From Cylindrospermum sp. NIES-4074 (GTDB lineage: Bacteria > Cyanobacteriota > Cyanobacteriia > Cyanobacteriales > Nostocaceae), in assembly GCA_003994795.1 (NCBI GenBank), contig AP018269.1, positions 3,322,484 through 3,368,099 of the forward strand: a stretch of 45,616 nucleotides of DNA, given 5' to 3'. The notes beneath the pieces were generated by a model, which was not told the origin of the DNA, did not search any database, and worked only from the letters and a program-made list of their open reading frames with translations. Positions within the stretch are counted from its first letter, which is position 1. Each line of letters opens with the position of its first letter. The translations under genes were made by a program, and so were the position numbers. Shown here piece after piece: positions 11,723 through 45,616 of this stretch.

Positions 11723-13522
11723 ATGTTTATAGATGGATTTAGTATTGCTGGTTATAGGAGCTTCGGGAGCCAGCTACAAAGAATTGGGCCACTGAATAAA
11801 ATCAATTTTTTTATTGGGCAGAACAATTCAGGAAAATCAAATATTCTCTCGTTTATGTCAAAATACTACCCAGCTGCATGGGAAGTTGCTAAAGGTCAAT
11901 GGACACATATAGCTCAAAAATGGAGCTTTGAAGGTATTGACAGGCATATTGGGCAAAACTCTGGAGAACCTTTGATAGAATTTGGAATCAAGATTAATGG
12001 GGAATACTATAACCTTATTCTAGAAGAATCTTTGAAATTAATTTCCGACATCTATAATAACTATGGTTCAGTCATAGATCCTAAAAATTGGATTGAGAAA
12101 ATTCTCAAGTCAAATACTCTCACACAAGGAACAGATATGATATGGTTTCCTCAAAAATTACCCAAATCACCAAATGATCAGTCAAGTTTAATTATGGATA
12201 AGCTAGTAAATAAAATTTATGAAGAATCTGTATTAAATGATTGGCAATGGTCTAATCTATGGGAAAAAATGACTAATCGTCAAGGCGGCGATATTAAAAT
12301 ACATCGGATTCCTCAAATACTTGAAAGACTAAATCCTGCACAATATATTAAATTACCTAAAATAGATATAATCCCAGCATTTAGAAAAGTAGAAGGTACT
12401 GACGTTCGGTCAGATGATTATAGTGGATTTGGACTAATAGATAAATTAGCAAGATTTCAGCAGGCTGGACATAGAACACAAAATTTACGAGAAGACTTCG
12501 ATAAAATTAATCAATTTGTTCGTGAAATAATTGGTAATGAAACGGCAAAATTAAATATTCCTTATGAGCGCGATATGATTGAGGTTGAGATGGACGATAA
12601 ATTACTTCCTTTGTCATCCCTTGGAACCGGAATTCACGAAGTGATTATCTTAGCCGTTGCAGCAACAGTTATTCAGAACCAAATACTTTGTATTGAGGAG
12701 CCAGAAATACACTTACATCCAACCCTTCAGAGAAAGCTTATTCGCTATCTGCAAGAGAAGACAAATAATCAGTATTTTATTACAACTCATTCTGCACATA
12801 TACTAGATACACCTGAAGCCGCAATATTTCATATTCAACATATAAATGGTGAATCTAAAGTAAATCCAGCCTACACAACGCAAAATAAGTCAATGATATG
12901 TACAGACCTTGGCTATCGCGCTTCTGACCTTTTGCAAGCAAATTGTGTTATCTGGGTTGAAGGCCCATCAGATAGAATATATATAAATCATTGGCTTCAT
13001 GATGTTGAACCTGATCTGATAGAAGGATTACACTACTCAATTATGTTTTATGGGGGCCGTTTGTTAAGCCATCTATCAGCAGATGATTCAGCGGATGAAG
13101 AAGATATTAATGACTTTATTTCCTTAAGAAGGTTAAACCGTTATATATCAATTGTTATTGATAGTGATAAAAGCACAGCAGATAGTCCTATTAATTCAAC
13201 AAAACAAAGAATTCAAGAAGAATTTGATAAAGGGACGGGATTTACCTGGATTACACAGGGTAGAGAAATAGAAAATTATATAGAAGCAAGCGTTTTAGAA
13301 GATGCTATTAAAAAAAGTCATCGGAATGTAGCTGAAATAATATCTACAGATTCATACGCTCACGTCTTACATTTCAAAAAGAGCAATGGAGACACTAAGA
13401 CAGATGCGGATAAAGTAAAAATTGCAAAGTACGTTACACAGCATCCTGCCAACCTAAATATACTTGATCTGAAGCAGATGGTAGACAAATTAGCTAATTT
13501 TATAAATCGGGCTAATAATTAG
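11723..13522 (+). CDS. OLD-family ATP-dependent endonuclease (AAA ATPase + TOPRIM)
   Basis: This 599-residue protein starts MFIDGFSIAGYRSFG, the typical opening of SMC/RecF-like ATPases. Walker A is GQNNSGKS (32-39), an ABC-type signature region is PLSSLGTGIHE, Walker B is CIEEPEIHLHP (about 323-334) and a switch His sits in TTHSAHIL. The C-terminal TOPRIM domain shows WVEGPSD (acid near 413), IDSDKS (Asp near 480 and 482) and GREIENYIE, the metal-binding pattern of OLD nucleases. Family members degrade DNA and several act in phage defence; the Gabija system pairs such a protein (GajA) with a UvrD-like helicase, but no helicase lies next door here. The gene is visibly more AT-rich than its neighbours and sits between repeat-filled spacers, which suggests horizontal acquisition. 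Start ATG 11723. Confidence 0.85.
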   Translation: MFIDGFSIAGYRSFGSQLQRIGPLNKINFFIGQNNSGKSNILSFMSKYYPAAWEVAKGQWTHIAQKWSFEGIDRHIGQNSGEPLIEFGIKINGEYYNLILEESLKLISDIYNNYGSVIDPKNWIEKILKSNTLTQGTDMIWFPQKLPKSPNDQSSLIMDKLVNKIYEESVLNDWQWSNLWEKMTNRQGGDIKIHRIPQILERLNPAQYIKLPKIDIIPAFRKVEGTDVRSDDYSGFGLIDKLARFQQAGHRTQNLREDFDKINQFVREIIGNETAKLNIPYERDMIEVEMDDKLLPLSSLGTGIHEVIILAVAATVIQNQILCIEEPEIHLHPTLQRKLIRYLQEKTNNQYFITTHSAHILDTPEAAIFHIQHINGESKVNPAYTTQNKSMICTDLGYRASDLLQANCVIWVEGPSDRIYINHWLHDVEPDLIEGLHYSIMFYGGRLLSHLSADDSADEEDINDFISLRRLNRYISIVIDSDKSTADSPINSTKQRIQEEFDKGTGFTWITQGREIENYIEASVLEDAIKKSHRNVAEIISTDSYAHVLHFKKSNGDTKTDADKVKIAKYVTQHPANLNILDLKQMVDKLANFINRANN

Positions 13523-24429: not shown

Positions 24430-25101
24430 ATGGATTGGCTAATCAGTACATCAGCTATCGGGGTATCGGCTGCTTTTGCAACCACCTTTGACGATAATTT
24501 ATACTTGACAGCCTTTTTCGGAAAAGTCAATCGCACCTTTCGTGCCAAGAATGTTGTTCTTGGTGAATATCTGGGATTTACTGCATTAGTGCTGGCCAGT
24601 CTCCCTGGTTTCTTCGGTGGTCTACTCGTTCCAGAGTCCTGGATTGGCTTGCTAGGGTTACTTCCAGTTACTATTGGTATCAGTAATCTCATCAAGCGGG
24701 AAGAGGAGGAAGACATGGTACAAGCTGTATCGATTAACTTACCCTCTCATGACAAATCGCCGCATCACAATAAATCACTATGGGCAACTCTGCGTGACCC
24801 TCAAACTTACCGTGTTTCTGCTGTGACCATTGCAAATGGAGGAAACAATATTGGAATTTACGTGCCTTTATTTGCCAGTAGCAATCTTCCAAGTTTAGGT
24901 GTAATTTTATCTGTTTGCTACGCGACTATTGGTGTATGGTGTCTACTTTCTTATAACATGACACGCAATCCTCTCATGGCTCCGCTGATAGCTCGCTATG
25001 GTCGTAAAATCTGCCCGCTTGTATTGATTTACTTAGGAATTTCCATCCTGATTAAAAATGGCAGTTATCAACTTTTACCTGGATTTAGTCATGTTTTCTA
25101 A
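24430..25101 (+). CDS. CadD-family cadmium-resistance transporter-like protein, copy 1
   Basis: This 223-residue integral membrane protein has about five or six hydrophobic segments. The N-terminus STSAIGVSAAFATTFDDNLYL carries the paired acids (DD) conserved in the CadD/LysE-like superfamily, and LGFTALVLASLPGFFGGLLVPESWIGLLGLLP is a family hallmark. DPQTYRVSAVTIANGGNNIGIYVPLFA is the mirror of the first motif. A His/Lys/acid-rich loop (about 82-118, with SHDKSPHHNKS) could sense or bind metal on one side of the membrane. CadD proteins export Cd2+ or related ions in Gram-positives; substrate specificity in cyanobacteria is not settled. The next gene is a paralogue. The ribosome-binding site is weak. 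Confidence 0.85.
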   Translation: MDWLISTSAIGVSAAFATTFDDNLYLTAFFGKVNRTFRAKNVVLGEYLGFTALVLASLPGFFGGLLVPESWIGLLGLLPVTIGISNLIKREEEEDMVQAVSINLPSHDKSPHHNKSLWATLRDPQTYRVSAVTIANGGNNIGIYVPLFASSNLPSLGVILSVCYATIGVWCLLSYNMTRNPLMAPLIARYGRKICPLVLIYLGISILIKNGSYQLLPGFSHVF

Positions 25102-25243
25102 TTTTATAAATTTGCTCCTGATTAATTACATGGTTGTGTAAATTTCTTGGGTAAGTCTAAATTCACTATTTTCAATTTCCGAGTTTTTAAATTTCGATTA
25201 TCAACAAATAATCAAACATCACAATCGAGAAGGACTTTCACAA

Positions 25244-25942
25244 ATGAGTGGGTTAATAACTGCAATAACCACTGGAATCACAGCCTTTAGTGCTACCAAC
25301 ATCGATGATATTGTTATCCTGACGTTGTTGTTCTCACAAATAAACAAGACCTTCCGCTCTCGTCACATTCTTGCAGGTCAATATCTAGGATTTGCTGTAT
25401 TAGTCGCCGCTAGCCTTCCTGGTTTCTTCGGTAGCTTAATTGTACCCCAGGAATGGATTAGACTACTAGGATTGATGCCAATTATCATTGGTATGACCAG
25501 TTTAATCAAACGCGATGAAGATTCATCAGATGAACTCAATCAAGAGACTGAGCCATCTTATCCCCCAGCACTGGCAAGTTTCCTGGCTCCTCAGACCTAC
25601 AATGTAGCTGCGATCGCCTTTGCTAATGGTAGTGATAATATTAGCGTCTATATACCGTTATTTGCTAACTCAGAAGTAGAGAGTTTGCTAGTGATTATTG
25701 GTGTATTCTTTGCAATGGTGGGTGTGTGGTGTTATGTCGCTTACAAGGCTACCAGTCTACCAGTAATCGCCCAATTTTTAACTGAACATGGTAATACTTT
25801 TGTTCCTTGCATTTTAATTGGGCTAGGTGTATTTATAGTGATGGAAAATATGATTTTTACACTTTTATCAGTAGTTGCTAGTTATCTATTTTCCTTAGCT
25901 TTGGATATGTATAATCAGCCATCGGCTGAACAAAAAAATTAA
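25244..25942 (+). CDS. CadD-family cadmium-resistance transporter-like protein, copy 2
   Basis: A paralogue of the preceding gene (232 residues) with the same order of motifs: TAFSATNIDDIVILTLLFSQ, LGFAVLVAASLPGFFGSLIVP, then GLMPIIIGMTSLIKRDED, and APQTYNVAAIAFANGSDNISVY. The loop between the two halves is acidic (DEDSSDELNQETE) where copy 1 is His-rich, so the two may differ in substrate or form a heteromer. It has a good Shine-Dalgarno (GAAGGA) before ATG 25244 and begins 142 bp after copy 1. It is followed after 85 bp by a secreted protein in the same direction, so all may belong to one LysR-controlled unit. Confidence 0.85.
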   Translation: MSGLITAITTGITAFSATNIDDIVILTLLFSQINKTFRSRHILAGQYLGFAVLVAASLPGFFGSLIVPQEWIRLLGLMPIIIGMTSLIKRDEDSSDELNQETEPSYPPALASFLAPQTYNVAAIAFANGSDNISVYIPLFANSEVESLLVIIGVFFAMVGVWCYVAYKATSLPVIAQFLTEHGNTFVPCILIGLGVFIVMENMIFTLLSVVASYLFSLALDMYNQPSAEQKN

Positions 25943-36046: not shown

Positions 36047-36925
36047 TTGCATTCCCCAAATCAGGAAAATAAAGTGTCAATTACAGAACATAAAATTACA
36101 GTAAATTCACTAGAATGGTATTATCGAGAAGCTTCACCAATTGGTAGAAGTAATTTACTGCCAGTGTTATTGCTACACGGTATAGTTGCCAACAGTTATA
36201 GCTGGAGAAACATTCTACCAGCTTTGGCAAATCAAGGCACAAGAGCGATCGCCCCAGATTGGATCGGTTATGGCTTTTCCAGCAAACCAGAAAAACGCGA
36301 TTTCGCTTACACTCCTGACGCATTCATTACAGCTTTAGAGGCATTTGTCAAGGCAGTAGAATTAGAACGATTCTCTCTAGTTGTCCAAGGTTTTTTAGGT
36401 TCAGTAGGTTTACAATACGCCTTGCGACATCCTGAACAAATCGCCAACATTACTATTTTAAATACACCCATTTCTACAGCCGTTCAATTACCCTGGAAAA
36501 TTCAACAAATGGGTTTACCTTTAGCGGGTGAAGTCATGACCCAAGACCCTTTATTAGTTGACCGGACTCTAGAAAATGGTAGCTGTTATGTAATAGTTGA
36601 GAAAGATTTAGAAGTTTATCGCCAACCCTATATCAAATCAGGCTCAACTGGGCGCAGTCTTTTAGCCACAATTCGTAATTTGCAACTGTCTTCAGCCATG
36701 ACAGAAATCGCATCTGGCTTTAAAAAATGGCAACAACCAATATTAATCCAATGGGGATTGATTGACCCTTGGTTATCTGTAGATATTGCCGAATCTTTCG
36801 CCAAATCTGTACCTAATACCGAATTAATCAAATTTAACAATGTCGGGCATTATGCCCAAGAACATTACCCTGAAGAGATGTTGCAAGACCTTTTGCCCTT
36901 CGTCCGTCTCGCTGGATCTAGTTGA
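36047..36925 (+). CDS. alpha/beta-hydrolase-fold protein lacking the usual nucleophile
   Basis: This 292-residue protein has the fold of haloalkane dehalogenases/epoxide hydrolases: LLLHGIVANSYSWRNILPAL (the HG oxyanion segment), APDWIGYGFSSKP, then the nucleophile elbow. There LVVQDWGG-type enzymes have an Asp, but this protein reads VVQGFLGS, with Gly115 at that position. The acid region (WGLIDPWLS) and terminal His268 (NVGHYAQEHYPEE) are kept. Classical hydrolysis through a covalent intermediate therefore seems unlikely; it could be a non-catalytic binder or use another mechanism. I recall similar VQGFLGS sequences in other cyanobacteria, so this may be a conserved variant rather than decay. 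The annotated start is TTG 36047; GTG 36074 with AGGAAA upstream is a good alternative. Confidence 0.75.
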   Translation: MHSPNQENKVSITEHKITVNSLEWYYREASPIGRSNLLPVLLLHGIVANSYSWRNILPALANQGTRAIAPDWIGYGFSSKPEKRDFAYTPDAFITALEAFVKAVELERFSLVVQGFLGSVGLQYALRHPEQIANITILNTPISTAVQLPWKIQQMGLPLAGEVMTQDPLLVDRTLENGSCYVIVEKDLEVYRQPYIKSGSTGRSLLATIRNLQLSSAMTEIASGFKKWQQPILIQWGLIDPWLSVDIAESFAKSVPNTELIKFNNVGHYAQEHYPEEMLQDLLPFVRLAGSS

Positions 36926-37457
36926 GTTGCTAGTCAGCACAATCTAAACAAAACCCAAAGGTAATAATTCAATAGCTAAATGCAGTACCAATACAGTTTT
37001 TATGCAAATAGCAAAGATTGCAGAAATTCTGATCAATGCCAACATAGAAGAAGTGTTTGACAGTTCAACGGATGTAAGGATTCAGGTGTTTGAAACCCAG
37101 TCACAGAGTCAGTTTCAAAATTGAATTTGGGTTATTAACATACCTTTAGTCGCAATAAGAAACGAAAATATAGGCGTTACGTAATTCTTATTGAGAATAA
37201 AAATTTGTGTTTAATTCCCAGAAACCCTTGTCAGGAAATGATTGTAGAGATTTTGATATGACCTGAATCCTTACCAACGGATTGTCAAAATTTACCTATG
37301 TTTTTCACTGATTATAAATCAATTCCGGCAATTGTCAGTGCTAAAACCATAGATAATTTACCTCTTCCCTAGCAACATTTCTCTTCTCCACCCAACAGAT
37401 TTTCACCTATGCATGAGCCAACTACAAATCAAGCCATTACACAACACCTTGAAAGGG
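36926..37457. other. intergenic with a candidate microprotein ORF
   Basis: About 530 bp beyond the end of the graspetide ligase genes. It holds a 40-codon plus-strand ORF at 37002-37124 (listed separately) and a 20-codon ORF at 37410 that overlaps the end of the MvdD-like gene. There is no T-run hairpin to end the ligase operon and no repeats that I recognise. Confidence 0.35.
37002..37124 (+). CDS. possible 40-residue microprotein
   Basis: ATG 37002 opens a 40-codon frame beginning MQIAKIAEILINAN and ending TQSQSQFQN. The composition is protein-like (amphipathic helix, acidic middle, Gln/Ser tail). There is no convincing Shine-Dalgarno, and an overlapping frame from ATG 36980 is equally open for 26 codons. 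It has no graspetide motif. I list it because it is the only coding-looking signal in this spacer. Confidence 0.2.
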   Translation: MQIAKIAEILINANIEEVFDSSTDVRIQVFETQSQSQFQN

Positions 37458-38432
37458 CTAGGATTGAGTAACTAAAAGTTCGGCAATCGCTTGAGAAATT
37501 GGTAAACCAGGGCAGCGTTCTAGCCAGAAGAACTCACCAACTGGGTTAACTTCTAGGAATACATGGCGATCGCATGGTGTGACAATAATATCAATCGCTC
37601 CATAGTTCAAACCAAAGTTAGCCATGAGTTTGAACAGCTTCTGTTCAACATCTTGGGGTAAAGTGTAAGGTTGCCAAGCATCCAGCAAAGCTACTCCCTG
37701 TCGTCGCCAGTCATATTGTGACTTTTTTAAAGCTTGGGAGTCAACAGCAGCGGTGAAAATGCGCTTACCGACAATAGTTGTCCGCAGTTCTAAAGCTTTG
37801 GGGATTTTCTCCTGAAATGTCATCGGGCAAAAACGCAGTCCATCAAGATGATTCAAATCCTCAGGGGTGACGGGATTGGTAAATACCACGTTCTCATGTC
37901 CTTGCTGATCATAAATAGCGAAGGAAGAGAGCATCTTAGTCACGATACCTTGCTCACACTCTTGGGCAAATTGCTTGACAGCTAGTGGATTATTGGTAGT
38001 TAAATTGCGGGGGGTATCTAAACCGATTGCCCTTGCGACTTGCAGTTGTAGTTGCTTATTCTCTGCCCGTCGAATACTTGGTTGAGGATCGAGATGGAAA
38101 CCTTTGATGCTGGCAATCATCCCCTGAATAGTAACACGAGATTCTTGAATAGAAGCTTGTCGGAGTTGCTTATCCATCGTTTGGGGAATTTTTGCCCCAA
38201 TAGCGATGCGTCGATACCAAACTGCGGATACCTCATCTAAGTCTAGCTTTTGGTCATCACAAGCTAGAATTACGCGCTCGGATTCTTTGCCATAGTACAC
38301 ATCTAACAGTACTTCTGTGGGAAATCGGTCTGTATCAAAACGAAATGCTTTTCCACCAAGATTTGCGATCGCTTGCTGAACTAGAGAAATGCTTTCGTTA
38401 TCTTCGCTGTGAGTAATGATTAAGATAGTCAT
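37458..38432 (-). CDS. MvdD/MdnC-like ATP-grasp ribosomal peptide maturase
   Basis: This 324-residue ATP-grasp ligase is expected to form the omega-ester (lactone) bonds of microviridin-type peptides. The pre-ATP-grasp domain starts MTILIITHSEDNES and includes FRFDTDRFP and VWYRRI, the family's signature for binding the precursor leader. The ATP-grasp half has CPMTFQEKIPKALELRTTIV and GAIDIIVTPCDRHVFLEVNPVGEFFWLE, where Asp, Glu and Asn bind Mg-ATP. In characterised systems MdnC (MvdD) makes two lactones between Thr/Ser and Asp/Glu and MdnB (MvdC) the Lys-Glu lactam; assignment here is by similarity. It starts at ATG 38432, overlapping the upstream ligase gene by 4 bp (ATGA), so the two are translationally coupled. 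It is the last gene of the cluster. Confidence 0.9.
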   Translation of the reverse strand: MTILIITHSEDNESISLVQQAIANLGGKAFRFDTDRFPTEVLLDVYYGKESERVILACDDQKLDLDEVSAVWYRRIAIGAKIPQTMDKQLRQASIQESRVTIQGMIASIKGFHLDPQPSIRRAENKQLQLQVARAIGLDTPRNLTTNNPLAVKQFAQECEQGIVTKMLSSFAIYDQQGHENVVFTNPVTPEDLNHLDGLRFCPMTFQEKIPKALELRTTIVGKRIFTAAVDSQALKKSQYDWRRQGVALLDAWQPYTLPQDVEQKLFKLMANFGLNYGAIDIIVTPCDRHVFLEVNPVGEFFWLERCPGLPISQAIAELLVTQS

Positions 38433-39427
38433 ATCAAGGGTTGTGGGTTTTTTGATAGTAGAGAATCGGCGATCGCTTCAGAAATCGGATAATTTAAATC
38501 TCGTTCCAGCATTCCCCATTCACCTGTGGGGTTAACTTCCAAAAAGACATATTCCCCTGAAGGTTTGATAATAATGTCAATTGCCCCAAAAGTCAGCCCA
38601 AACCTAGCCATAAAAGCCTTCAGACAATTGGCTACATCCGTTGGTAGTTCATGGGGTTGCCACACACAAGCTTCCTGTGTACCCCGACGCCAATCTTGGG
38701 TAGATGCTGCATAACCAGAGGCATCTAGCGCCCCCACAAAGAAATTTCCATCCGCAAACACAACTCGCAATTCCAGATATTTGGGGATTTGCTCTTGAAA
38801 AACCATAGGACAATAGCGCAGCGTCTGAGCATCCACCAAATCTGCTTCTTTAACTGCGCTGGTGTACATAAAGAAAGAAGATCCTTCCATACTAAAAGAA
38901 AGAGGTGTCAACAGCTTGGCAACCATTTTTCCCTCTAACTTATGGAAAAACTCCCGTGCTTCCTCAGGGTTATTAGTCACAAGAGTTTGGGGAATCATCA
39001 AACCCACCTCACCTGCAACCCTCAACTGTCGTAGCTTGTTTTCTGCGGCGTTGATTCGCTGCAAATCATCCACCCAACGAGCTGTTCTCAAACTGTCCCA
39101 GAAACCATCTAGAGTAGCTAGCGATTCTCTCACGCAAGATTGTTGAAATTGCGGAGCCAATTCCTTGCCAAACTCAGGCTGCCAAATGCGGCGCATCCAG
39201 ACAGCTTGCACCTGTTCTGTGGTGATACATATACCACCATATTTTAGACTGTGATGACTCCCAGAATTGCCAAGATGTGCCTGTATTTGCACAGCAATAG
39301 GAAACTGATCAGTGTCGAGACGAAATGGCTGTGCGCCTCGTTTTGATAGGGCATCTGCCACTCTATCTATTGTGAAAAAATCACCACTATGGGTAATTAA
39401 CAAAACCACATCACGAGAAGGGTGCAT
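38429..39427 (-). CDS. MvdC/MdnB-like ATP-grasp ribosomal peptide maturase
   Basis: A paralogue of the downstream ligase (332 residues from the chosen start) and the probable lactam-forming enzyme. Motifs are VLLITHSGDFFTIDRVADAL, FRLDTDQFP, VWMRRIWQPEFG, and in the catalytic half CPMVFQEQIPKYLELRVVFA and GAIDIIIKPSGEYVFLEVNPTGEWGMLE. MvdC proteins usually begin MHPSRDVVLLITHSGD, which fixes ATG 39427; the frame runs back to a TTG at 39469, adding 14 residues that do not resemble the family. The two ligases are near-equal in length, and this one keeps the E-P-N/ATP residues. Precursor genes lie upstream on the same strand, with a 376-bp repeat-containing spacer in between. Confidence 0.9.
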   Translation of the reverse strand: MHPSRDVVLLITHSGDFFTIDRVADALSKRGAQPFRLDTDQFPIAVQIQAHLGNSGSHHSLKYGGICITTEQVQAVWMRRIWQPEFGKELAPQFQQSCVRESLATLDGFWDSLRTARWVDDLQRINAAENKLRQLRVAGEVGLMIPQTLVTNNPEEAREFFHKLEGKMVAKLLTPLSFSMEGSSFFMYTSAVKEADLVDAQTLRYCPMVFQEQIPKYLELRVVFADGNFFVGALDASGYAASTQDWRRGTQEACVWQPHELPTDVANCLKAFMARFGLTFGAIDIIIKPSGEYVFLEVNPTGEWGMLERDLNYPISEAIADSLLSKNPQPLI

Positions 39428-39532
39428 ACAATATCCAATAATAAATCTTGGCGTTTTCTCTGTTGCCAAACATAACAGCAGAAATAGGCACTTAGCTTAT
39501 ATTTTGTACTATTCTCATTGAGCCACTTAACC

Positions 39533-39770
39533 TGCCTGGGAATGAATTCCCCCCGCTTATAGCCCAAGGCTATTTCGTTGCAATCTACAGCAACGCTACG
39601 CGAACAGGGTTAATTAAGACCGCTTATAAGACAGCTAACTAAAATAAGGATTTTAACCAGTTTTAACTGGTTTGTGCTTTAAGCCGGAACTTTAGTTCAC
39701 GGCTTTTGGCTTTCCTTTAGACGACTTGTGCTATTAGACTCAGAATTCATTCTGAGGCGGTTATTGGGAC
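39533..39770. repeat. hairpin-rich dispersed repeat between precursor and ligase genes
   Basis: The ends share GCCTgggAATGAATTC (about 39535-39550) and the inverted form GAATTCATTCTGAGGC (about 39742-39757). The interior carries AACCAGTTTTAACTGGTT, GCCGGAACTTTAGTTCACGGC and TAGCCCAAGGCTA palindromes. It is of the same general style as the element at 11358-11513. It sits in the 39470-39803 spacer and could reduce read-through from precursor to ligase genes, thereby setting a high peptide-to-enzyme ratio, though that is inference. Confidence 0.6.
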
Positions 39771-39803
39771 TGATGCAAAATTTGAGTTAGGGCTTAAAGA
39801 CCT

Positions 39804-40064
39804 TTACACAATAGGACAAATGCTATCATCACCGTCTGAGGGGTACTTCTGAGTAACAGCCTCATCACTATCAGAAGGGTATTTCTTAGTAGTTAAACCA
39901 CCGTCTTCGGCGTCAGAAGGATACTTTTCAGTTACAAATTTAGCACCGCCGGTGACTGCGCTGATTTCCTCTTCAGACATATCTGCACAAGATTGTCCTT
40001 CTAAAAAACGAGCGAAAAACGGTACTGCTTGCGAATTTAAATCTTCTACTTTGATGTTAGACAT
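39804..40064 (-). CDS. microviridin-type graspetide precursor A, three cores
   Basis: This 86-residue precursor has a leader with PFFARFLEGQ (15-24), the recognition helix bound by the ATP-grasp ligases. A Gly-Gly at 39-40 precedes three core modules: TEKYPSDAED (45-54), TKKYPSDSDE (59-68) and TQKYPSDGDD (71-80), followed by the tail SICPIV. In microviridins the Thr and Ser side chains are esterified to the acids and Lys forms an amide with the last acid. All three cores keep Thr, Lys, Tyr-Pro-Ser-Asp and two acids. A single Cys in the tail (SICPIV) and one in the leader (SCADMS) are unusual. The Shine-Dalgarno (AAAGGAAAAG) before ATG 40064 is good. Confidence 0.95.
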   Translation of the reverse strand: MSNIKVEDLNSQAVPFFARFLEGQSCADMSEEEISAVTGGAKFVTEKYPSDAEDGGLTTKKYPSDSDEAVTQKYPSDGDDSICPIV

Positions 40065-40091
40065 ATGCTTTTCCTTTAGTCTGGTTAGTGT

Positions 40092-40170
40092 GAATTGATA
40101 GCGTCAATTCAATCAATTAAATACCCATCCAAAACAATAGCTAATTTATTTAGTATGATAGATGGGTATT
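40092..40170. promoter_or_regulatory. two palindromes upstream of precursor A
   Basis: GAATTGATAGCGTCAATTC (40092-40110) is a perfect 7-bp-arm palindrome just ahead of the precursor A ribosome-binding site. Further upstream, AATACCCATC (40120-40129) and GATGGGTATT (40161-40170) are inverted around a 31-bp AT-rich spacer. Either could be an operator or an mRNA leader structure. This is a visual call only. Confidence 0.4.
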
Positions 40171-40180
40171 AAAACTTAAA

Positions 40181-40450
40181 AAGTAAGCATTCAGCTATCA
40201 GCGTTCAGTAGTCAGCGTTCGACGCTCGCTCACGCCGTAAGCGCAAAGCGCAGGCTTGTCTGCGACACGCTCCGCGAACCGCCAACGCGTAGCGTTCCGC
40301 AGGAAAGTCTAAAACAGAGTTTTAGACTGAGTTTAAGGGCTTTTCTCAAGGGATAATTACACCAAAAACAATTAGTAATCCCTCTGTCATAATGCTCATA
40401 AATTCTTTAGGATTGCTGATAGCTGACGGCTGACGGCTGAATGCTTACCT
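40181..40450. repeat. inverted-repeat element between the two precursor genes
   Basis: GTAAGCATTCAGC (40183-40195) and GCTGAATGCTTAC (40436-40448) are perfect inverted ends of a roughly 270-bp segment. Next to the ends are CAGCTATCAGC/GCTGATAGCTG modules, and the interior holds GCGCAAAGCGCAGGC and GCGTAGCGTTCCGC units common in cyanobacterial spacers. It has no coding capacity. Confidence 0.6.
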
Positions 40451-40504
40451 AAAAAAAACTAGGCAATTCAGGAACTTTTGAAAATAACCTGTAGTTCAGC
40501 TTAA

Positions 40505-40765
40505 CTAGACTGCTACACCGCCCTCATCGCCATCAGATGGGTACTTTAGAGTGACAGCATACTCATCACTATCAGAAGGATACTTCTTGGTGGCAACATC
40601 TTCTTGATCAGAAGGGTACTTTAAAGTTGTGACCCCACCACAGACGCCACCGTTAACTGCATCCAGTTCATTTTCAGACACCTCTACAGGGGTTTGTCCT
40701 TCAAGGAAGCGAGCAAAGAATGGCACCGCTTGTGAATCCAAATCTTCTACTTTTATGTTAGACAT
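40505..40765 (-). CDS. microviridin-type graspetide precursor B, three cores
   Basis: This 86-residue paralogue of precursor A has a near-identical leader (MSNIKVEDLDSQAVPFFARF), then EGQ, ending in NGG (38-40). Its three cores are TLKYPSDQED (47-56), TKKYPSDSDE (59-68, identical to core 2 of precursor A) and TLKYPSDGDE (72-81). The order of acid pairs (ED, DE, then DD or DE) is the same in both precursors, so the whole gene was duplicated after the cores had multiplied. The tail is EGGVAV without Cys, but Cys42 sits just before core 1. A strong Shine-Dalgarno (AAAGGAGAAA) precedes ATG 40765. It is the first graspetide gene on this strand. Confidence 0.95.
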   Translation of the reverse strand: MSNIKVEDLDSQAVPFFARFLEGQTPVEVSENELDAVNGGVCGGVTTLKYPSDQEDVATKKYPSDSDEYAVTLKYPSDGDEGGVAV

Positions 40766-41055
40766 ACATTTCTCCTTTATTTTGGTTGATTTAGATGCTC
40801 TTAAATCATTGTTTTATTAATATAACTTTCAAAATCGGAGTTTTTTTCCTTGATTTGTCCACAGTTACTCAACTTATAGGGACATAATTAATTTAGTTAT
40901 ATCAATATTATGAGTAGTTAAAACCCACCACTAGCTTTCTCGGAAACCAACACCATACGATTCAATCGCAGCACGAGGACATAGCTGAATATTTTAGGGA
41001 TATAATTACTATAGTTATGTCCCCCAAAAAATAAGGTAGATTTAGAAAATCAACC
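40766..41055. promoter_or_regulatory. spacer between CHAT gene and precursor B with duplicated palindromes
   Basis: Two related imperfect palindromes in direct repeat: GGGACATAATTAATTTAG plus TTATATC (40879-40903) and GGGATATAATTACTATAG plus TTATGTCCC (40997-41023), 118 bp apart. The second is a near-perfect hairpin (GGGATATAA / TTATGTCCC). They lie upstream of precursor B and just past the CHAT gene stop. They could be an operator pair, or the ends of a small IS200/IS605-type (palindrome-bounded) element; no tyrosine-transposase gene is present. Confidence 0.5.
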
Positions 41056-44000
41056 TTACCAAGGGCTACCAATCATTGTAAAAGCTGCCCAATAAAAGGG
41101 ATGAGATAGCTTTCCTTGAATGTTGTTCTGCAAATATTCAGCCTGTTTAGATGATAGTTGGATGCTACCTTGAGAACCAATAAAGCGATGCCCTTCTATT
41201 CGCACTTTACCTTGAAGCATTGCTAATTGCGCTTGTTGCAATGCTTCGGCTTTAATCCTGGCAGTAGTTAAGTTACTATAAAGTTCAGTCATTAACCCCA
41301 AGGTTGCCGGATCTGACACATACCACAAACTCGCTATTGCTGACTTGACACCACTCTTCACAGCTAACCCCGCAAAACCTAATTCTGCCTGTTCATCACC
41401 TACAGCAGATTTACAAGCACTTAACACCAATAACTCTACTGGGGGATTTTTCCACCCCAATTGATCTATTTGATTTAGCTGTAGCTTGCTGTCATACAAC
41501 TGAATATATGATTTATTTTGACCTGCACTTGCTTGACTGGAAAAGTCTGCATGGGTGGCTAAGTGAATGACTTTATACGGTGTGGTGGCACGTTGAGCTT
41601 TCAGATTAGCAAGGGTAAAGTCTTGGTTGAGGAAGTATTTACCCCGTTTGAGTTTGTTGATGATGGCAGGAATTTCTAGAGGTACAGCGTGTAATTCTGA
41701 TTGTTCTTGTTCTGGAGTAAATTTTTCCGCTCCCATTGCTAAAACTTGAGCGTCTTTGAGTCCAATATATGTGGTGTCTGTGAGGCTGAAACTCGGTAGG
41801 AGAGCGACACTGTACTTTTCGATCAGAAATTGTTTACCATCATGGAGAGCGGGTAGGGGAAGCGATCGCAATCCTCCATCCATGACAAACATCAAATTGG
41901 TGATCCCTTGCTTCCGTAACTCTGCTTCCTGGGGTGCTATCAGCCATTGATAAAGCTTCTGGGAACTGGCTAAATATTTGTTGCTACCAGTTTTTTCTTT
42001 ATCAGTAATTTCTGATTGAAATTCTTTAGATGCAGCCATTACCTTGGCTCTAGTCGCACCCGATACTGGCTTGTAAACAGGTAGCAAGTCTCCTGTGACA
42101 ACACCCACGCGCAGGATATCGCTATCTTGTGTGATGTTTATTAAACTCCCAGAACGGGCTGCCAATTTTTCTGGTGCAAAGTTGACATAAATAATAGCCG
42201 ATTTAACCCCTGTGGTTGACTCAACAGTGCGGAGAACTGTTTGTGAATCCTCTGTTTTGGTTAGGTTTCCAGTCGTGGTTAGTCCTAGAAATGAAGCAAA
42301 TTGTTGGGTGTTACTCTCCTCTGATTTGTCAATAGCTTTACTTTCGGCTATAGCTGATTGAGTGCTATTAGTGGATGTTACTCCTATATCAGCGGTTGTG
42401 GTTTTTTCTTCTGGTGTCTGTTTTTCCTGTGTCTGCTCTTCTGGCGATTGTGCTTCTTGATTGGGAATATTTGTAGATAGCGCCGACGTTATTTCAACAG
42501 GAGTGAGCTGTGAGAGAAATGATAAATTTATTTGAATATTGCCTTGTGTGAAATTATCAGTGAACAACTGAGTAGGTAAAATGCTGTTAGTAGAGCTAGT
42601 AACGATACTTCCAGCAGTACCATTGGTGGTAGCATCACCTACCACAAAGCTTTCACCTCCATGATTAATAGTGATATTACCACTACCCAAACCCCCAGAT
42701 GTAGAGATACTGGCGTTAATCCCATTGCTATCGATGAAGGTGTCTGTGGCGCGGAAATTGCGTTTAGTGGTGATATCTACATTCCCACCTATGCCGTTGG
42801 TTCCACCTTGGGCGTTGATTGATGTCACTACAATATTATTGTCTGGATCTAGTGTTACCGAGCCACCATTACCAGTGCTAGAACTGGAATTGATGACGCC
42901 GGCATTGATGCGATCGCGTGCCAGAAGAGCTACAGCACCCCCATTACCAGAAGTAGTATTAGAATTGATGTTGCCAGTGGCGATCGCCCCTGTAGTGCTA
43001 TTGAGTTCGACATTACCCGCATTACCAGCTTTGCTGGCTGAAGAAACATCTCCGGTAGTGACATTACCCTTCGCACTGAGGGTGGCATTACCGCTATTAC
43101 CTTCTCCATTAATATTGGAGTTTAAATCACCAGTTGTAATGCTCCGATTTTGACTGGTAATTTTAATATCTCCCCCTGCTGTAGAGATATTACTAGTATT
43201 AATATTCTGATTTGCTAGCAGTGTAATTGAGGCATTATCTTCACCTGTAATTGCCCCTATGGCATTAATTGCACCTGACCCAATATTAGATTGAATTGTC
43301 ACAGGGTCAAAGAATTTAACAGGATTAATTGTAATTAATCCACTGCTATCAGAGCCTCCAATAGTGATAGCATTGAAACCCTTAGTTAAGGAGGCAATAT
43401 CAGTTGTCGTCAGGTCTAAGGTATTTTCCCCGCTATCACTAGCACCACCAACTATGATATTTTGTGTTGCTGTTGTTGGTTGTAGGAATAAGTTACCCTC
43501 ACCATTAAAAGAATTCGCTGTAGCTGGCAAGTCAATTTCATTAGCAGTCAAAGTTAGATTGTTACTACCAGCGGCAAAACTGCCTAAAATATTAATTGTG
43601 GCAGTGCCTACATCAAGAGTTGTATTACCCGTCAGAGTGGTATTACCATTGAGTGTAATGTTTTGATTATTAGTGGTGATATCTCCAACGTTGATTTTGT
43701 TGGCAGTGAGATTAATGGCTGCGTTCCCCGCACCTGTAATTTTGCCTGTAGCGGTGATACTGCCATTGGGAGACTGAATATTTACTGGATTGTTGAATGT
43801 AACCGGATTAATGGCGATCGCCCCACTACCATCACTCCTGCCAATGGTGATGGTACTAAAGCCATCTTTCAGGGAAGCTAGTTCACTGGTAGTTAAGTCT
43901 AAGGAATTACTATCACTGTCAGTAGTTCCGGCAATATTAATATTTTGTCCTGGGGTTGCAGGCTGCAAGACTAAATTACCGTTACCACTGACACTGGCTG

Positions 44001-45616
44001 TAGATAGCAAGTTAATTTCATCTGCGGTGAGTGTCAGGGTATTACTACCCGCTCCTATATTCCCGTTAATATTGAGGGTAGCACTGCCAATATTAAAGCT
44101 GGTGTCTGCAATGAAGTTCAAATTGCCGTTGATGTTGAAATCTTGATTGTTAGTGGTGATATTCCCAGAAGTGATATTACCGAGATTTAGGCTAATTGTC
44201 GCGTTGTCAGCGCCAGTAATTGTCCCATTTCCTGCTAGAGTCCCCTGAGGAGATTGAATTGTCACTGGATCTCGGAATGTTGCACCCTCACTAGCGATGG
44301 TAATCTCCCCACTGCCATCTTCGCGGCCAATGGTGATGGAATTGAAGCCATTTTGCAACAATCCGAGTTCTGTAGCTGTGAGATCCACAACCCCAGGAGT
44401 GATATTACTGCTACCACCCAGGCTAAATCCTGTATTTGCTGTTCCCTGTTCAAGTTGCAGATTGCCAGTACCTGTGACATTGCCTTGAAAATCAATTTCA
44501 TTGCCAATTAATTTCAGGTCGTTACTATTTAATGTCACAGTATTGTTAAAGGCGATCGCACCAGTTCCCGCATTAAACACTTTGCTACCACTACCAGTCA
44601 AACTGACAGGACTATTAAATTGCTGAATACCTGTGGTGTTGATGTCATTAGCCACATTTGTGTTGGTGGCATTCAGAGTTAAATTGCTAGTTCCAGTTAC
44701 TTTGTTGCCAAAGGTAATTTCGCCTGTAGAGGTGAAGGTTTTAGGAGTATCACCAGTCAAGTTGACTTGACTATCAAATTGCAGATTCCCTGTATCGATG
44801 TTATTAGCCACATTGGTAGTAGCAGCACTCAAAGTTAAATCGCTGGTTCCCGTGACTGTATTACCAAAGGTAATATCACCTATAGATGTGAAGGTTTTAG
44901 CATTGGCACCAGTTAAGTTAACTTGACTATTGAATGCCAAATTACCTGTACCCGTACTAATGTTATTAGCAACATTAGTCTTGGCAGCAAAGAGAGTTAA
45001 ATTGCTAGTTCCTGTGACTGTATCTTTGAAGGTGATCTCACCATCACCTGTATTAAGAGTTAAATTGGCATTGATTAGGGAGACGGTTTTCTCAAAGTTA
45101 ATAGCAGAGTTGTTGGTGGTGATGTTCCCATTCAGGTTGGTCTTACCATCAAAGGTGATAGAAGCGTTATCTTCACCTGTAACTCCATTAACATTGATAG
45201 TGCCAGTGGGCGATCGCAATGTCAGCGGATCACCAAAGGTGACGTTACCATCCAGAGTAATTGCACTGCTGCTATCTGTGCGTCCGATAGTAATGGAACT
45301 AAAGCCATTTTGCAAGAAGCTGATGTCTGTGCTGGTTAAATCCAATATACTGTTGTCATCACTATATATTCCCCCAATGGCGATCGCTTGAGACACAGTG
45401 AAAGGCTGAAGCGTCAAATTGCCTGTACCTGAGACATTTTGACCAAAGTTTAGTTCATCTCCGGTTAAAGTGCGATCGCCTAAAATTGCCACTGTACTGT
45501 TATAGGTTTGTCCGGTGGTAGTGGTGACATCACCGTTGAGTTGAGTTGTCCCTGCATTGTTAACTGTTAAGCTGCTTAAAGGAGTAGCATTACCCACCGC
45601 CGCATTTAAGTTGACA
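41056..45616 (-). CDS. giant repetitive beta-solenoid-like protein with C-terminal CHAT protease domain, 5'-partial
   Basis: The frame is open from the right edge, so the N-terminus lies outside; at least 1519 residues are visible. The N-terminal two-thirds consist of filamentous-haemagglutinin-like beta repeats rich in Asn, Thr, Gly and Ser. One unit (GF..ITIGR.D.SG.I.I......P..I.SP.G) recurs four times, and a shorter unit (NLTL.A..TNVANNI and F.S.VNLTG) recurs at least three times. After a Gln/Glu/Thr-rich linker (near 42360-42490) comes a CHAT domain, a caspase-like cysteine peptidase fold. HLATHADF holds the catalytic His (about 41553) and LSACKSAVGD the Cys (about 41413), ending SHPFYWAAFTMIGSPW. 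Similar proteins are common in filamentous cyanobacteria, with an N-terminal secretion/haemagglutination domain. The target is unknown. Confidence 0.88.
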   Translation of the reverse strand, partial: VNLNAAVGNATPLSSLTVNNAGTTQLNGDVTTTTGQTYNSTVAILGDRTLTGDELNFGQNVSGTGNLTLQPFTVSQAIAIGGIYSDDNSILDLTSTDISFLQNGFSSITIGRTDSSSAITLDGNVTFGDPLTLRSPTGTINVNGVTGEDNASITFDGKTNLNGNITTNNSAINFEKTVSLINANLTLNTGDGEITFKDTVTGTSNLTLFAAKTNVANNISTGTGNLAFNSQVNLTGANAKTFTSIGDITFGNTVTGTSDLTLSAATTNVANNIDTGNLQFDSQVNLTGDTPKTFTSTGEITFGNKVTGTSNLTLNATNTNVANDINTTGIQQFNSPVSLTGSGSKVFNAGTGAIAFNNTVTLNSNDLKLIGNEIDFQGNVTGTGNLQLEQGTANTGFSLGGSSNITPGVVDLTATELGLLQNGFNSITIGREDGSGEITIASEGATFRDPVTIQSPQGTLAGNGTITGADNATISLNLGNITSGNITTNNQDFNINGNLNFIADTSFNIGSATLNINGNIGAGSNTLTLTADEINLLSTASVSGNGNLVLQPATPGQNINIAGTTDSDSNSLDLTTSELASLKDGFSTITIGRSDGSGAIAINPVTFNNPVNIQSPNGSITATGKITGAGNAAINLTANKINVGDITTNNQNITLNGNTTLTGNTTLDVGTATINILGSFAAGSNNLTLTANEIDLPATANSFNGEGNLFLQPTTATQNIIVGGASDSGENTLDLTTTDIASLTKGFNAITIGGSDSSGLITINPVKFFDPVTIQSNIGSGAINAIGAITGEDNASITLLANQNINTSNISTAGGDIKITSQNRSITTGDLNSNINGEGNSGNATLSAKGNVTTGDVSSASKAGNAGNVELNSTTGAIATGNINSNTTSGNGGAVALLARDRINAGVINSSSSTGNGGSVTLDPDNNIVVTSINAQGGTNGIGGNVDITTKRNFRATDTFIDSNGINASISTSGGLGSGNITINHGGESFVVGDATTNGTAGSIVTSSTNSILPTQLFTDNFTQGNIQINLSFLSQLTPVEITSALSTNIPNQEAQSPEEQTQEKQTPEEKTTTADIGVTSTNSTQSAIAESKAIDKSEESNTQQFASFLGLTTTGNLTKTEDSQTVLRTVESTTGVKSAIIYVNFAPEKLAARSGSLINITQDSDILRVGVVTGDLLPVYKPVSGATRAKVMAASKEFQSEITDKEKTGSNKYLASSQKLYQWLIAPQEAELRKQGITNLMFVMDGGLRSLPLPALHDGKQFLIEKYSVALLPSFSLTDTTYIGLKDAQVLAMGAEKFTPEQEQSELHAVPLEIPAIINKLKRGKYFLNQDFTLANLKAQRATTPYKVIHLATHADFSSQASAGQNKSYIQLYDSKLQLNQIDQLGWKNPPVELLVLSACKSAVGDEQAELGFAGLAVKSGVKSAIASLWYVSDPATLGLMTELYSNLTTARIKAEALQQAQLAMLQGKVRIEGHRFIGSQGSIQLSSKQAEYLQNNIQGKLSHPFYWAAFTMIGSPW

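What the first reader, a model, noticed from the sequence alone, without database searches (positions are those of the whole stretch)
37458..40765. Six-core microviridin-type graspetide locus with two tri-core precursors
Two 86-residue precursors each carry three complete TxKYPSD cores behind a PFFARFLEGQ leader, next to coupled MvdC-like and MvdD-like ATP-grasp ligases. One locus could yield up to six tricyclic depsipeptides. Multicore microviridins are known, but most characterised microviridins come from single-core precursors. The mdnD acetyltransferase and mdnE/mvdA ABC transporter are not within the window on either side, so export, cleavage between cores and N-acetylation are unexplained.
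Basis: partly seen in the sequence, partly recalled or inferred. Interest (0 to 1): 0.75.

Follow-up and report, generated by a model that had tools for sequence, protein, structure and literature searches.

The report
Class II multicore microviridin gene cluster
A cyanobacterium carries a standard set of genes for making cage-shaped protease-inhibitor peptides (microviridins) from two precursors with three core sequences each; such multi-core precursors are already known, so this is a tidy new example rather than a surprise.

Summary
On the minus strand lie two 86-residue precursors, each with a PFFARFLEGQ leader and three TxKYPSDx(D/E)(D/E) cores, then MvdC and MvdD ATP-grasp ligases overlapping by 4 bases. 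The kind is known: a class II (multicore, double-glycine leader) microviridin cluster, like the tri-core AMdnA/AMdnC system of Anabaena PCC 7120 (PMC5934393). Of the 80 best MvdD relatives, 48 have a multicore precursor. Two multicore precursors side by side are rare but not unique: Moorena bouillonii has 5+3 cores, G187 has 3+3. Missing mdnD/mdnE is a class I expectation. Class II is associated with C39 peptidase-transporters; none was detected at 21 of 36 complete class II loci, nor here. The genome holds an unlinked C39-ABC/HlyD pair, the C39-ABC 61% identical to one linked to a microviridin cluster in Nostoc UHCC 0870. Relatives of it occur in 202 of 217 family genomes, so it is a candidate, not proof. 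One side observation is mildly interesting: core specificities keep a positional order (Leu, Lys/Arg, Gln) among closer relatives, not among the most diverse ones.

The parts
40505..40765 (-). precursor peptide gene A2 (86 aa), cores TLKYPSDQED, TKKYPSDSDE, TLKYPSDGDE; double-glycine leader end ELDAVNGG
   Evidence: PF12559 85.1 bits, NF033738 78.5 bits; core audit; groups with the Komarekiella / Nostoc MG11 tri-core precursors, support 98/95, on a long branch
39804..40064 (-). precursor peptide gene A1 (86 aa), cores TEKYPSDAED, TKKYPSDSDE, TQKYPSDGDD; double-glycine leader end EISAVTGG
   Evidence: PF12559 76.4 bits, NF033738 71.3 bits; core audit
38429..39427 (-). MvdC-type (MdnB-like) ATP-grasp ligase, predicted to form the Lys-Glu/Asp lactam; start taken at the ATG (a TTG start at 39469 is also open)
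   Evidence: TIGR04185 513.5 bits over cut-off 425; best solved relative is the AMdnB protein 7m4s, 542 bits over 322 residues
37458..38432 (-). MvdD-type (MdnC-like) ATP-grasp ligase, predicted to form the two lactones
   Evidence: TIGR04184 545.7 bits over cut-off 475; best solved relative 5ig9, 439 bits; 80% and 70% identical to plasmid copies in Nostoc UHCC 0870 and 0926
40183..40448 (.). 266-bp interspersed repeat (MITE-like, 34-nt imperfect terminal inverted repeats) between the two precursor genes; an insertion, probably not functional in the pathway
   Evidence: inverted repeat I1; at least 27 further near-full copies in the same genome

Best explanation
This is a class II (multicore, double-glycine leader) microviridin cluster. 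Each precursor's PFFARFLEGQ helix recruits and activates MvdD and then MvdC. MvdD closes two ester rings per core (Thr1-Asp7 and Ser6-Asp/Glu9) and MvdC one amide ring (Lys3-Asp/Glu10), so up to nine waters are lost per precursor. A C39 peptidase-ABC transporter with an HlyD partner then cuts after the Gly-Gly and exports the modified core region. With none at the locus, this would be done in trans, most plausibly by the unlinked C39-ABC/HlyD pair at C1:4.947-4.951 Mb. The products would be serine-protease inhibitors whose specificity is set by the residue between Thr and Lys (Glu, Lys, Gln in one precursor; Leu, Lys, Leu in the other). Shown here: gene content, motifs, family membership, and that a C39/HlyD pair exists. 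Inferred from the family: ring formation, ring assignment and ring order. Inferred only: export in trans, protease targets, and whether the three cores are cut apart.
For: Both ligases pass the equivalog cut-offs for MvdC and MvdD, and both precursors pass the microviridin cut-offs. The best solved relatives are microviridin ligases: 5ig9 for MvdD, 7m4s (named AMdnB) and 5ig8 for MvdC (that 5ig8/5ig9 are MdnB/MdnC is recalled, the records say 'ATP grasp ligase'). AMdnC installs up to two lactones on each of the three cores of AMdnA in vitro (PMC5934393: main-text parts 1 and 2 of 6, and passages). Both leaders match a strict double-glycine pattern of mine that is met by 39 of 71 precursors with at least 3 cores, 3 of 37 single-core ones and 0 of 7100 shuffles, and the tail E(I/L)X2(I/V)XG(G/A) of the consensus quoted in PMC3140520. 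A C39 domain was detected at 15 of 36 complete class II loci and 0 of 12 complete class I loci. The genome has seven C39 domains. One belongs to a 722-aa C39-ABC 61% identical over 632 residues to the microviridin-linked one of Nostoc UHCC 0870 (next best 33%), beside an HlyD 47% identical to the linked one.
Against: No product or expression data. The nearest C39 domain in the genome is about 198 kb away. The favoured C39-ABC/HlyD pair sits among its own double-glycine precursors (11 leaders in the 17-kb stretch), and its relatives are in 202 of 217 family genomes at E 1e-200, so its presence says nothing specific. A profile of those 11 leaders does not favour the window's leaders: A1 scores below all five of its own shuffles, A2 below the one of its five shuffles that was reported. 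The published double-glycine tail is met by only 7 of 71 precursors with at least 3 cores (7 of 7100 shuffles), and the window leaders lack the M(R/K)EL head of that consensus. Lactam formation on a tri-core precursor was not described in the text I saw.
Confidence: 0.85

Rival explanations
1. Each precursor is cut between its cores, so the locus yields six separate small tricyclic peptides.
For: [quoted passage not shown] Precursor A1 has GG between cores 1 and 2.
Against: The other spacers in the window are VA, YAV and AV. In 71 precursors with at least 3 cores the spacers are short and varied, median 4 and 3 residues. No other protease was found to recur at these loci, but only C39, HlyD and ligases were searched systematically. 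A microviridin need not be freed to act: the modified MdnA precursor inhibits elastase with its leader still attached (PMC11672978, abstract and passages).
Confidence: 0.4
2. A NosP-like M1 metallopeptidase removes the leader after LEGQ, as NosP does after LEEQ in class I microviridins.
For: The leaders read PFFARFLEGQ, close to the LEEQ/LAEQ motif cut by NosP (PMC13039773: part 1 of 5 and passages). The genome has one M1 peptidase match, at C1:3583959.
Against: The motif differs (Gly for Glu), the source describes it for class I only, and both leaders carry a double-glycine site. A single M1 peptidase may be housekeeping: 8 of the 14 control genomes have the family. It was not compared with NosP.
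Confidence: 0.12
3. The cluster is a decaying or silent acquisition. It lies where synteny with its two same-genus relatives ends, a mobile repeat sits between its precursors, and it has no transporter of its own.
For: Both same-genus genomes lack PF12559. One shares the left flank up to 37367, about 90 bases short of MvdD, and nothing beyond in the stretch compared. The repeat at 40183-40448 has at least 27 other near-full copies.
Against: All four genes are intact, the ligases pass the equivalog cut-offs and all six cores are complete. Its four closest named relatives also lack a detected C39 or HlyD gene at the locus.
Confidence: 0.1

Closest known systems
AMdnA/AMdnB/AMdnC of Anabaena (Nostoc) sp. 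PCC 7120, class II microviridin
   Same: One leader with PFFARFL, three tandem microviridin cores, one MdnB-type and one MdnC-type ligase; AMdnB (7m4s) is the best solved relative of the MvdC here
   Different: The paper text seen describes one tri-core precursor, with the ligase gene in record NC_003276.1 (a plasmid, recalled; PMC5934393); here there are two precursors, on a 6.8-Mb contig
Komarekiella delphini-convector, K. atlantica, Nostoc sp. MG11 and Desmonostoc vinosum loci (L046-L049)
   Same: Closest named MvdD relatives (85-86% identity), tri-core precursors with the same leader, no C39 or HlyD hit within 10 kb
   Different: One precursor per locus. Genome G042, which I take to be Desmonostoc vinosum from an identical precursor and contig length, has a second tri-core precursor on another contig
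Moorena bouillonii PNG (L087) and genome G187 (L175)
   Same: Two multicore precursors side by side (5+3 cores; 3+3 cores)
   Different: Distant precursor sequences; L087 totals eight cores
Nostoc sp. UHCC 0870 plasmid locus (L014)
   Same: MvdD 79-80% identical, multicore precursor (4 cores)
   Different: Carries its own C39-ABC transporter and HlyD beside the ligases, one precursor, on a plasmid

Membership tests
Class II microviridin | Paired MvdC- and MvdD-type ATP-grasp ligases | tested here: met
   TIGR04185 and TIGR04184 over cut-off
Class II microviridin | PFFARFL leader helix | tested here: met
   Motif present in both precursors; PF12559 and NF033738
Class II microviridin | Several (up to five) tandem cores on one leader | tested here: met
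   Three complete cores in each
Class II microviridin | Double-glycine motif | tested here: met
   VSENELDAVNGG and MSEEEISAVTGG match the strict pattern
Class II microviridin | C39 peptidase transporter at the locus (often, not always) | tested here: not met
   No C39-ABC or HlyD hit in the window or the next 16.9 kb; nearest C39 domain about 198 kb away. Also not detected at 21 of 36 complete class II loci. Not treated as defining, since the sources say 'often' or 'normally'
Class II microviridin | Two lactones and one lactam formed per core; serine-protease inhibition | not testable with these tools
   Needs co-expression, mass spectrometry and enzyme assays
Class I microviridin | Single core per precursor, mostly without a double-glycine motif | tested here: not met
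   Three cores and a double glycine in each precursor

The most novel reading that the evidence does not exclude
The tri-core region is not cut apart but is exported whole as one trivalent inhibitor whose heads stand in a fixed, selected order (hydrophobic, basic, Gln), each blocking a different class of serine protease; this genome's second precursor supplies a complementary trivalent variant (Glu-Lys-Gln beside Leu-Lys-Leu), and a shared bacteriocin-type C39 exporter serves both in trans.
Probability: 0.2. Interest if true: 0.5.

Novelty: new member of a known kind. Interest (0 to 1): 0.2.

Why it matters
The native product of a class II precursor (cut or uncut) was not described in the passages I saw, so this locus is a convenient test case. 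The ordered-core observation gives a concrete prediction about which proteases each head should block.

Tried and rejected
Presence of the C39-ABC as evidence for export in trans: rejected, because the base rate is 202 of 217 family genomes. A search of 50 genomes holding relatives of this MvdD gave 50 of 50 at E 1e-20, which is too loose to tell anything.

Leader kinship with the bacteriocin precursors beside that C39-ABC: tested with a profile from 11 leaders. Among reported scores, precursors with at least 3 cores have median -0.5 bits (69 of 71 reported), their shuffles -2.1 (217 of 355) and single-core precursors -2.6 (35 of 37), but the window's own two leaders score -3.6 and -4.5.

Recent tandem duplication of the precursor gene: not supported. 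A2 groups with the Komarekiella/MG11 precursors (98/95) while A1 falls outside that group with weak support (few columns, A2 on a long branch). The two genes are still alike over 141 bases of leader and upstream DNA at 74%.

Core-order pattern as proof of selection: weakened. It is strong among 71 precursors (0 of 300 order permutations) and among 35 representatives at 75% identity (0 of 2000), but not among 11 at 60% (222 of 2000), so inheritance without shuffling may explain it.

RNA families at 36900-41100: none at gathering scores. A first core search that allowed only AGY serine codons missed the window's own cores and hit one unrelated place. PADLOC scan of the CHAT protein: nothing. No structure prediction was run: solved relatives already cover both ligases.

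Known weak points of the census: cores and leaders were counted by motif, so degenerate ones are missed. The 80 named loci are the best hits to this MvdD and so lean to class II. Two truncated loci counted as single-core (L052, L081) do carry a C39 gene. Of the 21 complete class II loci without a detected C39 domain, L074 has a C39-ABC-like hit cut off by the locus end, L100 an ABC hit without the C39 part, and L055 and L086 short ABC hits.
Full report
What is there. The window lies in a 7.70-Mb genome of 5 contigs. At 37458-40765, all on the minus strand, are four genes: precursor A2 (40505-40765), precursor A1 (39804-40064), an MvdC-type ligase (38429-39427, ATG start preferred) and an MvdD-type ligase (37458-38432). 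The last two overlap by four bases. Both precursors are 86 aa, each with a PFFARFLEGQ leader and three cores. The ligases pass the equivalog cut-offs of TIGR04185 and TIGR04184, and the precursors pass PF12559 and NF033738. The six cores are the only six in all frames of the window, and no core appeared in 24,000 shuffled frames. No further PF12559 match exists in the genome at E 0.001. The closest solved structures are 5ig9 for MvdD, and 7m4s (AMdnB) and 5ig8 for MvdC.

What kind it is. Microviridin precursors are divided into class I (one core), class II (up to five tandem cores, double-glycine motif, often with a C39 peptidase transporter) and class III (PMC13039773, part 1 of 5 and passages; PMC7823629, passages; both cite Ahmed 2017, which I did not see). 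[quoted passage not shown] The window cluster meets the class II features tested: paired ligases, leader motif, three cores, double-glycine leader end. Its leaders end in VSENELDAVNGG and MSEEEISAVTGG. A strict form of that pattern is met by 39 of 71 distinct precursors with at least three cores, 3 of 37 single-core ones and 0 of 7100 shuffles. The published consensus tail is met by both window leaders but by only 7 of 71 precursors with at least three cores, 0 of 37 single-core ones and 7 of 7100 shuffles. A C39 transporter at the locus, frequent but not universal in the class, was not found.

How common it is. PF12559 occurs in 112 of 217 genomes of the family. Of 80 named loci found with an MvdD query (the best 80 of 154 relatives), 48 have a precursor with at least two cores, 23 only single-core ones, and 9 none that my motif search could see. 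I also examined 91 sources in 78 family genomes: 90 stretches covering all listed PF12559 places of 47.8 bits or more outside the window, plus the window. Genomes with only weaker places were not examined. Of these 78 genomes, 73 have a multicore precursor; five stretches gave no parsed precursor. The stretches reach only about 1-1.5 kb to each side. Six of the 78 genomes have two multicore precursors; at one place this is so in the window and G187. Among the named loci it is so in Moorena bouillonii (5 and 3 cores). The two sets overlap in part. So two tri-core precursors side by side is rare, not unique, and six cores is not the highest total seen.

Export and leader removal. Of 38 frames of at least 120 aa in the window, 33 were scanned with Pfam and none is an acetyltransferase, ABC transporter or C39 peptidase; tblastn with the C39-ABC, HlyD and GNAT proteins of the UHCC 0870 locus finds nothing in the window or the next 16.9 kb. 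Among class II loci with at least 20 kb held, a C39 domain was detected within about 10 kb of MvdD at 15 of 36, against 0 of 12 class I loci; it was not detected at 21 of 36, including the four closest relatives. Of those 21, L074 shows a C39-ABC-like hit cut by the locus end and L100 an ABC hit without the C39 part, so the true count without one may be a little lower. The window's genome holds seven C39 domains, the nearest about 198 kb away. One belongs to a 722-aa C39-ABC protein at C1:4946876-4949041, 61% identical over 632 residues to the microviridin-linked transporter of Nostoc UHCC 0870, while the other six are 33% or less; beside it is an HlyD 47% identical to the linked one. This pair is a plausible exporter in trans. 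Against reading too much into it: it has its own double-glycine precursors (11 leaders), relatives occur in 202 of 217 family genomes, and a profile of those leaders does not favour the window's leaders.

Core order. The residue between Thr and Lys sets protease specificity (position 5; passages of PMC7823629). Among 71 precursors with at least three cores, the last three cores show a usual order: Leu in 39, Lys or Arg in 56, Gln in 39. Variable core positions agree 55% between same-position cores of different precursors and 32% between different positions; none of 300 order permutations reached the observed value. A Leu-Lys-Gln score holds with 35 representatives at 75% identity (0 of 2000 permutations) but not with 11 at 60% (222 of 2000), so it may reflect shared descent in the nearer relatives rather than selection. 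The window's precursors read Glu-Lys-Gln and Leu-Lys-Leu. Spacers between cores are short and varied, and a modified precursor can inhibit elastase with its leader attached (PMC11672978, abstract and passages), so a single trivalent product is about as reasonable as three separate peptides.

Origin. Both same-genus genomes lack the precursors. They share the left flank of the cluster; in one of them similarity runs to 37367, about 90 bases short of the MvdD stop, and then ends. Neither the cluster, the CHAT-domain gene beyond it, nor the 16.9 kb that follow match within the 18.0 and 14.5 kb compared. The cluster therefore lies at the edge of a variable region. A 266-bp repeat with at least 27 other near-full copies in the genome separates the two precursors. 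A2 groups with the Komarekiella-type precursors; A1 is more distant, so the pair does not look like a fresh duplication.

Verdict. Observation confirmed; kind known; two tri-core precursors a mild rarity. Nothing here requires a new mechanism. I do not claim that ordered trivalent microviridins or a trans C39 exporter are unpublished: my paper searches cover open-licence papers only.

Noticed in passing
window 40183-40448: 266-bp interspersed repeat with imperfect 34-nt terminal inverted repeats, at least 27 other near-full copies in the genome (40 of 243 candidates were scored); MITE-like.
   Followed up: partly
window about 37072-37276: About 203-bp repeat with three further copies at about 100% identity (C2:53912, C1:1007247, C1:3695710), absent from the otherwise continuous syntenic place in G002, so probably a recent insertion.
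   Followed up: partly
L129 (G000:C1:4940000-4957000): Bacteriocin-type cluster: HlyD and a C39-ABC transporter with 11 small proteins whose leaders resemble ELFVELSDEQQELLAGG in the same stretch.
   Followed up: partly
L133 7253-8958 (G000:C1 near 332-334 kb): A distant ATP-grasp protein (28% to MvdD, 334 aa) beside a 235-aa frame that may be a truncated ATP-grasp partner, perhaps like the branch 8 loci described in PMC8939145 (passage).
   Followed up: no
window 41056-45615: Long protein (at least 1513 aa) with a C-terminal CHAT protease-like domain (PF12770, 219.7 bits), directly upstream of the precursors; its frame runs off the window end.
   Followed up: no
window 11723-13522: AAA ATPase (PF13175), weakly like GajA and AriA defence proteins (80 bits each); no partner gene examined.
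   Followed up: no
window 24430-25942: Two adjacent, similar membrane proteins, both PF03596 (cadmium resistance transporter family; 94.7 and 107.2 bits).
   Followed up: no
L080, L084, L090-L094, L098: These eight class II loci (Hassallia, Brasilonema, Calothrix, Scytonematopsis, Rivularia) carry a different C39-ABC transporter (31-33% to the UHCC 0870 one) with a distant HlyD (22-25%), suggesting more than one C39 family has been recruited.
   Followed up: partly
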